Origin: Bacteroidota bacterium | GTDB taxonomy: Bacteria > Bacteroidota > Bacteroidia > Palsa-965 | Direction of reading: 5' to 3' | Assembly (NCBI GenBank): GCA_013298545.1 | Contig: JAAFIA010000027.1 | Span: forward strand, 1-51,115 | Length of the DNA: 51,115 nt | Notes under the pieces: generated by a model | What the model saw: only the letters and a program-made list of their open reading frames with translations | The model's database searches: none | What the model was told of the DNA's origin: nothing | Program-made: the position numbers and the translations under genes | Shown: piece after piece, positions 2,814 to 51,115 of the stretch | Layout of the letters: each line of letters begins with the position of its first letter | How positions within the stretch are numbered: the first letter of the stretch is position 1

Positions 2814-2886
2814 GGCTTGGTAGCTCAGTTGGTAGAGCAACAGACTGAAAATCTGTGTGTCGACGGTTCGATTCCGCCCCAAGCCA
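2814..2886 (+). tRNA. tRNA-Phe (anticodon GAA)
   Basis: The cloverleaf can be drawn by eye. Acceptor arms are GGCTTGG (2814-2820) and CCAAGCC (2879-2885) with discriminator A. The D-arm region is TAGCTCAGTTGGTAGAGCA. The anticodon stem ACAGA/TCTGT encloses loop CTGAAAA, giving GAA. The T-loop is TTCGATT. The T-stem GACGG/CCGCC has one A-C mismatch. CCA is not encoded. It is followed by a tandem repeat array whose units begin with a copy of the acceptor end. Confidence 0.95.
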
Positions 2887-2891
2887 CTTTC

Positions 2892-2923
2892 AAAAAAGCA
2901 TTCGCAATCGCGAATGCTTTTTT
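2892..2923 (+). terminator. intrinsic terminator of tRNA-Phe (repeated at 3033-3064 and 3174-3205)
   Basis: A 14-bp perfect stem AAAAAAGCATTCGC / GCGAATGCTTTTTT with loop AATC starts six bases after the tRNA. It is duplicated in each of the next two 141-bp units. Confidence 0.85.
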
Positions 2924-2978
2924 GTTTTAATTCGATCTGGCGGAATCGAACGCAGCCGCACCGTCTGGCTCCTTCGCT

Positions 2979-3003
2979 AAAAATGTCTCCCAGACATTTT
3001 TTT
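2979..3003 (+). terminator. second terminator-like hairpin of the repeat unit (also at 3120-3144 and 3261-3285)
   Basis: Stem AAAAATGTCT / AGACATTTTT with loop CCC and a run of seven T. It gives each repeat unit two terminator-like structures. Confidence 0.6.
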
Positions 3004-3321
3004 AACGCTCGGCCCTGCCCCAAGACACTTTCAAAAAAGCATTCGCAATCGCGAATGCTTTTTTGTTTTAATTCGATCTGGCGGAATCGAACGCAGCCGC
3101 ACAGGCTGGCTCCTTCGCTAAAAATGTCTCCCAGACATTTTTTTAACGCTCGGCCCTGCCCCAAGACACTTTCAAAAAAGCATTCGCAATCGCGAATGCT
3201 TTTTTGTTTTAATCCGATCTGGCGGAATCGAACGCAGCCGCACAGGCTGGCTCCTTCGCTAAAAATGTCTCCCAGACATTTTTTTAACGCTCGGCCCTAC
3301 CCCAAGCCACGTTCAAAAAAG

Positions 3322-3361
3322 ATCAAAAAAAATCGGACGACTCTGAAAGAATCGCCCGATT
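3322..3361 (-). terminator. intrinsic terminator of the T9SS gene at 3378
   Basis: On the minus strand a 10-bp stem (AATCGGGCGA / TCGTCCGATT, one G-U pair) is followed by at least eight T. It lies 16 bp after the stop codon of the upstream gene. Confidence 0.8.
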
Positions 3362-49583: not shown

Positions 49584-51115
49584 TTACTGTGTAACAGTAA
49601 CTTTCTTCGTGAATACATATTCGTCGTTGATTACTTTGACCAAATACATACCAGCAGCAGTACCACCTGTAAGTTGTGTCAAGCTAACATCTTCGTGAAT
49701 ATATGTAGCATCAGCATATGTTTTCTCGAAAATTACTTTGCCTGTAAGGTCATAAATAATTACGGTTACAGTTGTGTTCGGAATTGCTGGTGTAATATCC
49801 ATGGTAAATGAACCATTGTTTGGATTTGGATATACATCAACTTGTCCGCCTTGGAAATGATCATCGTGTTCAACGTGTGCAAAACGCGCGTTTGGATCAC
49901 AATCGTCTGAACAACCACCCAAACAATCACCATGTGCAAGGTGCGTTGCAACGGCATTTGGACTGATTTCAATATCAACTTCCGTATTGGTTGCACTACT
50001 TGTAACGTGACAAACTTTTACTTTTTTCACGCTGCCATTGTTGTTGTATGAAGCAACTACATTGACCACTTTTACTTCAACTACTTGCGATGCAGAACAG
50101 CCGTTTGCATCGGTTACAGTTAATGTATAACTGTAGTTTGAGCAACCACTTGTTGTATTTGGTGTAAACAACGGATTAGCAATTGACGCATTACTCAAAT
50201 TAGTAGATGGATACCAAGAATAAGTATATGCAGGTCTGCCGCCTGATGCTGAACCATTGAGTGTTGCCGTTGTTGGTCCATTGCCATAACCAATAACGAT
50301 ATTGGCATTATTTGAACCGTAACCGCAAGTACTGATGGGTGAAACAGCCAATGGCGCAATGTTCGCAACCAAATTATTGGCACGTGTTACCGTAAATGCA
50401 CATGTCGAGATGTTTCCATTCACATCTGTTACGGTAACGTTCACCAATGTAGTTCCATAATTGAATGAAGAACCAGAAGCTGGTGAAGAAACGACAGAAG
50501 CAATACCACAATTATCCGTAGCATTGATTGTCCAGCTTGCAGTCGAAACACAAGAAGCGATGTTGATGTTTGCAGGGCAAGTTACAACTGGCGCTTGATT
50601 GTCGGTTACAACGACGTTCTGTGTACAAGTTGCAGTATTACCATTTACATCTGTTACAGTCCAAGTTACAGTTGTTGTTCCAACTGGATAAGATGTTGGT
50701 GCGTTGTTGCTTACAGATGCAACGCCGCAATTATCAGCCGTTGTTGGTGTACCAAGGTTTACATTAGACTTGCTGCAAAGACCTTGCGTTGCACTAACAG
50801 TAACCGCTGCTGGACAAACAATTGTTGGATTTTGGTTATCCGTTACAACTACGTTCTGTGTGCATGTTGCAGTATTACCATTTACATCTGTTACGGTCCA
50901 AGTTACAGTTGTTGTTCCAACTGGGTAAGATGTTGGTGCGTTGTTGCTTACAGATGCAACGCCGCAATTATCAGCCGTTGTTGGTGTGCCAAGGTTTACA
51001 TTAGACTTGCTGCAAAGACCTTGCGTTGCACTAACAGTAACCGCTGCTGGACAAACAATTGTTGGGTTTTGATTGTCGGTTACAACTACGTCTTGTGTGC
51101 AAGTTGCGGTGTTAC
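49584..51115 (-). CDS. C-terminal part of a large HYR-repeat T9SS surface protein
   Basis: The frame is open from the right edge to the stop at 49584, giving about 510 visible residues of a longer protein whose start is outside the window. The N-terminal visible part is made of HYR domains of 79 residues (VVVTDNQNPTIVCPAAVTV, CSKSNVNLGTPTTADNCGV, YPVGTTTVTWTVTDVNGN), repeated with nearly identical DNA. A segment KVCHVTSSATNTEVDIEIS with ATHLAHGDCLGGC is a small Cys/His module often seen before the tail. The last ~80 residues (VDVYPNPNNGSFTM to YVFTKKVTVTQ) form a type A Type IX sorting domain. Probably an adhesin or extracellular structural protein. A TTG at 50447 is not a credible start because the domain continues upstream of it. 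Confidence 0.88.
   Translation of the reverse strand, partial: NTATCTQDVVVTDNQNPTIVCPAAVTVSATQGLCSKSNVNLGTPTTADNCGVASVSNNAPTSYPVGTTTVTWTVTDVNGNTATCTQNVVVTDNQNPTIVCPAAVTVSATQGLCSKSNVNLGTPTTADNCGVASVSNNAPTSYPVGTTTVTWTVTDVNGNTATCTQNVVVTDNQAPVVTCPANINIASCVSTASWTINATDNCGIASVVSSPASGSSFNYGTTLVNVTVTDVNGNISTCAFTVTRANNLVANIAPLAVSPISTCGYGSNNANIVIGYGNGPTTATLNGSASGGRPAYTYSWYPSTNLSNASIANPLFTPNTTSGCSNYSYTLTVTDANGCSASQVVEVKVVNVVASYNNNGSVKKVKVCHVTSSATNTEVDIEISPNAVATHLAHGDCLGGCSDDCDPNARFAHVEHDDHFQGGQVDVYPNPNNGSFTMDITPAIPNTTVTVIIYDLTGKVIFEKTYADATYIHEDVSLTQLTGGTAAGMYLVKVINDEYVFTKKVTVTQ
50595..51115. repeat. 237-bp direct repeats encoding HYR domains
   Basis: Corresponding bases recur with 237-bp spacing (for example 50595/50832 and 50821/51058), and the copies differ at only a few positions. 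The array continues beyond the window. Confidence 0.85.

What the first reader, a model, noticed from the sequence alone, without database searches (positions are those of the whole stretch)
2814..3322. tRNA-Phe followed by a three-unit tandem array that reuses the tRNA acceptor end
Seen: exact 141-bp period, more than three copies, each unit starting with an acceptor-like AAG(C/A)CAC and containing two terminator-like hairpins. Known: the E. coli tyrT locus has an analogous arrangement (rtT repeats of 178 bp that each include the end of the tRNA gene). Inference: an unrelated lineage has evolved an rtT-like array, perhaps by slipped duplication at the tRNA end, which may yield small RNAs or buffer transcription termination.
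Basis: partly seen in the sequence, partly recalled or inferred. Interest (0 to 1): 0.62.

Follow-up and report, generated by a model that had tools for sequence, protein, structure and literature searches.

The report
Hairpin repeat copying a gene's tail
Behind a tRNA gene sits a small array that repeats the tRNA's end, its transcription stop, a backwards copy of part of the tRNA and a conserved DNA hairpin; the same layout recurs behind other tRNA genes and a few protein genes in related bacteria, pointing to an undescribed kind of repeat that duplicates the ends of genes.

Summary
In detail: tRNA-Phe (2814-2887) is followed by a 141-bp array of 3.2 copies. The rtT analogy is superficial: no Rfam RtT match. 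A covariance model built without the tRNA end found further members behind tRNA-Lys and tRNA-Glu; with the seeds, six tRNA species are used, each copy reusing its own tRNA's end and, mostly, its own antisense T-arm. The hairpins covary strongly (18 of 19 pairs). In other families of the class the hairpin is dispersed, yet several protein-gene copies show the same layout: X, gene tail, reverse complement of X, hairpins, X, gene tail. Best reading: a REP-like foldback element, formed at the DNA level, that copies its target in inverted orientation and duplicates the gene tail. That mechanism is inferred. Recombination probably made the tandem copies. No mobilising protein was found: the hairpin is absent from sampled RAYT and GIY-YIG neighbourhoods. 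Separately, GIY-YIG genes often lie between a tRNA and a palindrome-broken copy of its 3' part.

The parts
2814..2887 (+). intact tRNA-Phe(GAA)
   Evidence: ARAGORN; Rfam RF00005 70 bits
2876..3016 (+). array unit 1 (tRNA 3' end + terminator + antisense T-arm + two hairpins)
   Evidence: TRF
3017..3157 (+). array unit 2
   Evidence: TRF
3158..3298 (+). array unit 3
   Evidence: TRF
3299..3321 (+). fourth copy of the tRNA 3' end (ACCCCAAGCCAC) with a decayed start of the terminator; possibly the displaced original end
   Evidence: 'displaced original' is inference
3017..3028 (+). tRNA 3'-end copy GCCCCAAGACAC
3158..3169 (+). tRNA 3'-end copy GCCCCAAGACAC
2891..2924 (+). intrinsic terminator of the tRNA / unit 1
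3032..3065 (+). intrinsic terminator, unit 2
3173..3206 (+). intrinsic terminator, unit 3
2939..2951 (+). antisense copy of tRNA-Phe nt 53-65 (T-arm), GGCGGAATCGAAC
3080..3092 (+). antisense T-arm, unit 2
3221..3233 (+). antisense T-arm, unit 3
2939..3015 (+). two-hairpin element, unit 1
   Evidence: covariance model R1, 67.3 bits, (seed member of the model)
3080..3156 (+). two-hairpin element, unit 2
   Evidence: R1 70.2 bits, (seed member of the model)
3221..3297 (+). two-hairpin element, unit 3
   Evidence: R1 70.2 bits, (same sequence as a seed member)
2979..3001 (.). core hairpin AAAAATGTC-tccca-GACATTTTT (also 3120-3142 and 3261-3283)

Best explanation
The array is the tRNA-tail form of a REP-like foldback repeat of Bacteroidia. 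SHOWN: at many sites the order is X (a site near the 3' end of a gene, here the T-arm) - gene tail with terminator - reverse complement of about 9-13 nt of X - hairpin 1 - hairpin 2 - X again - second gene tail. The antisense piece matches the particular neighbouring gene, and the hairpins keep pairing through compensatory changes. INFERRED: the element acts as DNA. A hairpin at or near X is extended on the neighbouring strand (self-priming or template switching), which writes X in inverted orientation, and the end is rejoined to a second copy of the gene tail. The gene keeps a working end (acceptor strand and terminator), so the event is tolerated even in a tRNA gene, and the displaced old end lies at the far side. 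Recombination between identical units then gave the three-unit array, which is probably selfish or neutral; each unit's terminator keeps it largely untranscribed.
For: Antisense T-arm exact in all three units. A model without the tRNA 3' end found new members behind tRNA-Glu (G007; G065, another family) and tRNA-Lys (G004), each bracketed by its own tRNA end. Covariation on 19 members: 18 of 19 pairs changed on both sides, score 0.418 vs 0.144 +/- 0.019 shuffled and at most 0.103 when slid. Against mismatched loci, the antisense segment matches the site's own upstream sequence at p <= 0.017 in 13 of 29 loci, and the tail duplication at p <= 0.021 in 18 of 29. Protein-gene or other non-tRNA cases: L317 (13-nt perfect reverse complement), L322, L319, L321. 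In G145 two sites carry different antisense pieces that follow different upstream sequences, ACGATACACC and ACGATGTAC. The tRNA-Lys array of G003 alternates two terminators, so its units are not all one local duplication.
Against: No empty/filled pair of close strains was found, so the order of steps is inferred. At least eleven of the 29 loci are tRNA loci, whose T-arms resemble each other, and some other loci are related or share a genome. More than half of the loci (L318, L323, L325, L328, L329 and others) show no significant antisense piece; the tail match of L315 is simple sequence. Compensatory changes can arise without selection, by template-switch correction of imperfect palindromes. 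The 19-member alignment was fitted to the structure, which leans pair counts towards it. No mobilising enzyme found: no R2 hairpin in 12 RAYT loci or 48 GIY-YIG loci.
Confidence: 0.5

Rival explanations
1. Plain slipped or unequal tandem duplication at the tRNA end, an rtT-like accident of no wider meaning.
For: Array units are 97% identical with no indels; the terminator is copied together with the tRNA end; copy number varies between related loci.
Against: Does not create an antisense T-arm nor a conserved covarying two-hairpin element shared by six tRNA species and by protein-gene sites. It probably explains only the step from one unit to three.
Confidence: 0.15
2. Transposition of a RAYT- or IS200/IS605-like single-strand hairpin element, with the tail duplication as a by-product of insertion.
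For: Hairpin with a 3' bulge, dispersed copies, Y1_Tnp genes in 9 of 10 genomes.
Against: No R2 hairpin within the 12 sampled RAYT loci; RAYT-type genes are also present in genomes without the hairpin (G001, G006); no conserved GTAG or CGTC foot seen in the alignment; known REP insertion does not duplicate gene tails (own knowledge).
Confidence: 0.2
3. A non-autonomous derivative of the GIY-YIG genes that sit between a tRNA and a broken copy of its 3' part.
For: The same family carries such loci (tRNA-Asn and -Val in G000, -Met in G004, -Val in G007); both kinds reuse the tRNA end and terminator.
Against: Different palindrome (TCCCGA..TCGGGA), different copied length, no antisense T-arm noticed there; R2 hairpin in 0 of 48 GIY-YIG loci.
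Confidence: 0.08
4. A functional RNA or regulatory 3' region of the tRNA operon (small RNA, or a readthrough trap in which the antisense T-arm spoils tRNAs from readthrough transcripts).
For: Strong covariation; folding pairs the T-arm with the antisense piece around the terminator (DNA parameters).
Against: A terminator precedes the hairpins in nearly every unit; close relatives lack the array at tRNA-Phe (G001, G005, G006); the same hairpin sits behind unrelated protein genes.
Confidence: 0.07

Closest known systems
rtT repeats of E. coli tyrT (Rfam RtT)
   Different: tRNA-Tyr and 178 bp there; no RtT match here; antisense T-arm plus conserved hairpins here; family spread over several tRNAs and species
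REP / REPIN palindromes (PMC3733652)
   Same: Short dispersed hairpins; REP clusters can be reiterated in tandem with flanking DNA
   Different: No conserved GTAG/CGTC end seen; target-complementary segment and duplication of the gene tail; not found beside the sampled RAYT genes
Integrative elements that use tRNA 3' ends as attachment sites (own knowledge)
   Same: The gene end is supplied anew and an old end lies at the far side, in outline
   Different: 141-bp unit with no integrase gene; protein-gene ends are used as well; antisense copy of the target
Rickettsia palindromic elements (own knowledge)
   Same: Small palindromic elements found inside genes
   Different: No sequence comparison made; here the element lies between two gene tails

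Membership tests
rtT repeats | tandem repeat behind a tRNA containing the tRNA 3' end | tested here: met
rtT repeats | sequence/structure match to Rfam RtT | tested here: not met
   no RtT match at gathering score or at E up to 5
rtT repeats | expressed RtT RNA or its phenotype | not testable with these tools
   needs RNA data
REP/REPIN | short imperfect palindrome dispersed in the genome | tested here: met
   hairpin dispersed in G135, G145, G271, G360 and others; in G000 itself only in this array
REP/REPIN | conserved GTAG or CGTC at the foot of the hairpin | tested here: not met
   none conserved in alignment A5 (inspection)
REP/REPIN | copies flanking a RAYT (Y1_Tnp) gene | tested here: not met
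   0 hits in 12 Y1_Tnp loci; only these 12 were tested
GIY-YIG tRNA-tail loci | GIY-YIG gene between the tRNA and the copy of its end | tested here: not met
   no such gene in 2876-3321; R2 absent from 48 GIY-YIG loci
tRNA-targeting integrative element | integrase gene inside the element | tested here: not met
   141-bp units; ORFs over the array are only frames of the repeat

The most novel reading that the evidence does not exclude
A new class of DNA element that inserts near the 3' end of a gene, writes a reverse complement of its target next to its own hairpins and gives the gene a fresh tail, so that it can settle even in essential tRNA genes.
Probability: 0.3. Interest if true: 0.8.

Novelty: new variant of a known kind. 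Interest (0 to 1): 0.6.

Why it matters
If right, small hairpin repeats can duplicate and replace gene ends, including those of tRNA genes, and leave a readable record of their target beside themselves. That would offer a testable route by which tRNA-end duplications and pseudo-tRNA pieces arise. Several contigs of the draft genomes end inside or just after such repeats, so they may also cause assembly breaks.

Tried and rejected
Blastn of the array against phage and plasmid records: no match. Exact core pattern CTAAAAATGTCNNNNNGACATTTT: only G000, G003 and G007. Pattern TGTCCACNGGACA: tRNA-linked in G003 and G007, dispersed in G014 and G035, other hits elsewhere look like coding sequence. Pattern scan of viral contigs: 0. 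A phylum-wide sample of 395 genomes hit only genomes of the same class. Rfam at E up to 5: only sub-threshold matches besides tRNA. Antisense tRNA pieces downstream of all 200 tRNA loci are not more frequent than in the null overall; the signal is confined to loci with the hairpin. Literature: no paper on GIY-YIG genes with tRNA-end copies or on this repeat in the open library; Dunin-Horkawicz 2006 (PMC1564403) has no hit for Bacteroid* or COG2827 and its few tRNA mentions are unrelated. Dropped: GIY-YIG or RAYT proteins as the shown mobiliser.

Full report
OBSERVATION. The window has one tRNA, tRNA-Phe(GAA) at 2814-2887. TRF reports 2876-3321 with period 141, 3.2 copies and 97% matches. Units start at 2876, 3017 and 3158 and differ at 3, 1 and 4 positions in pairs 1/2, 2/3 and 1/3. 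A fourth tRNA end stands at 3299. The same-genome search finds no other array of this sequence. The genome is a draft of 154 contigs, so the number of units needs long reads.

ANATOMY. One unit reads: last 12 nt of the tRNA - intrinsic terminator (15-bp stem) - spacer - GGCGGAATCGAAC, the exact reverse complement of tRNA nt 53-65 - hairpin 1 (CAGCC/GGCTG in units 2 and 3) - hairpin 2 (AAAAATGTC/GACATTTTT) - GGCCCT - next tRNA end. Folding pairs the tRNA T-arm with the antisense piece around the terminator.

RELATIVES AT tRNAs. In the same family G002, G003, G004 and G007 carry a further copy of the tRNA-Phe end, or the start of such a unit, behind tRNA-Phe; G001, G005 and G006 do not (by inspection). 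Not all of these are of the window's kind: the G004 copy has another insert. Over 192 tRNA loci, mostly of this family, the tRNA's own last 22 nt recur within 600 nt at score >= 15 in 21 cases, against 0 of 1760 mismatched controls. These recurrences are of several kinds. The window kind, with the hairpin TGTCCACNGGACA, lies 74-90 nt behind tRNA-Leu, Arg(cct), Lys, Arg(acg) and Phe.

COVARIANCE MODEL. Nine window-type units were aligned without the tRNA 3' end and made into model R1. Over 79 relatives it gave 25 matches in 9 genomes, among them new ones behind tRNA-Glu in G007 and in G065 of another family, and two behind tRNA-Lys in G004; all of these are bracketed by that tRNA's own end. Weaker matches were partly orphans without an intact tRNA, and some look like chance. 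On 19 members, 18 of 19 pairs show changes on both sides; covariation score 0.418 against 0.144 +/- 0.019 in shuffles and 0.037-0.103 in slid controls. The alignment was fitted to the structure, so the count leans towards it; the independent MAFFT alignment of nine seeds gave 0.354 against 0.146 +/- 0.031, with the structure drawn from the same sequences.

BEYOND tRNAs. Model R2 matched 20 of 395 genomes of the class at E <= 1e-5, seed genomes included, and in a phylum-wide sample only genomes of the same class. Outside the family most matches are not beside tRNAs. Yet the layout recurs at other gene ends. In L317 the gene end contains ATCTGAAAGAAAT and the hairpin is preceded by its 13-nt reverse complement; the DNA behind the hairpin contains another possible ending of that gene. 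In L319 and L322 about 50 nt of a gene end are repeated behind the hairpin. In L321 and L331, two places in one genome, the antisense pieces differ and each follows its own upstream sequence. With mismatched loci as null, 13 of 29 loci reach p <= 0.017 for the antisense piece and 18 of 29 reach p <= 0.021 for the tail copy. At least eleven of the 29 are tRNA loci and some loci are related, so these are not 29 independent trials.

MECHANISM. The layout X - tail - X' - hairpins - X - tail is what fold-back synthesis at a hairpin, followed by rejoining to a second tail, would leave. This is inference. Nearly every unit carries its own terminator ahead of the hairpins, which argues for a DNA rather than an RNA role. 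The alternation of two terminators in the tRNA-Lys array of G003 shows that units can come from different copies. Unequal recombination would then amplify identical units. No mobilising protein was identified: the hairpin is absent from 12 Y1_Tnp loci and 48 GIY-YIG loci, and Y1_Tnp genes also occur in genomes without the hairpin.

KNOWN SYSTEMS. rtT works as a rough analogy (tandem repeat with a tRNA end) but there is no RtT match. REP elements share dispersed palindromes; the conserved tags described in PMC3733652 were not seen. I found no description of this layout in the open literature library, which lacks most subscription papers.

A SEPARATE PHENOMENON. Small GIY-YIG genes lie behind several tRNAs (one of them matches PF01541 at 2e-15). 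The one behind tRNA-Ala was used to fetch 45 loci by protein similarity alone. In 22 the gene starts within 100 bp behind a same-strand tRNA, and in 17 a copy of that tRNA's last 24 nt follows the gene at score 13 or more (counted by me). The copy is usually broken by a palindrome such as TCCCGA..TCGGGA, at the same place in tRNA-Asn in four loci. Upstream partial tRNA copies with such palindromes also exceed the null (score >= 13: 23 of 196 against 9 of 727). This deserves its own study; I found no link to the window's hairpin.

Noticed in passing
L181, L182, L186, L187, L190, L192, L194, L195, L197, L200, L201, L202, L204, L207, L210, L215, L219: Small GIY-YIG genes behind tRNA genes, followed by a copy of the tRNA 3' part that is usually broken by a palindrome, in Bacteroidota and a few other phyla.
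   Followed up: partly
L258 (G003:C4), L012, L056, L098, L109, L120, L144, L145, L154: Partial 5' copies of tRNAs upstream of the intact gene, with palindromes in place of the D-loop or the anticodon arm; in L258 a tandem array of such 5' halves.
   Followed up: partly
L063, L112, L113, L116 (G000), L082, L133 (G003): Another layout behind tRNA-Arg, -Ser, -Val and -Met: very long foldbacks that include the terminator region in both orientations before the tRNA-end copy.
   Followed up: no
G000:C74:29702-32092 (L110): Cluster of 13 tRNA genes, including a second tRNA-Phe; possibly of phage or other mobile origin.
   Followed up: no
window 50595-51115: 237-bp tandem repeat, 2.2 copies, running to the contig end.
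   Followed up: no
L323 (also L318, L328): The R2 hairpin in L323 lies near the start of a reverse transcriptase ORF that looks like a group II intron protein (not tested with Pfam); L318 and L328 have a similar flank.
   Followed up: no
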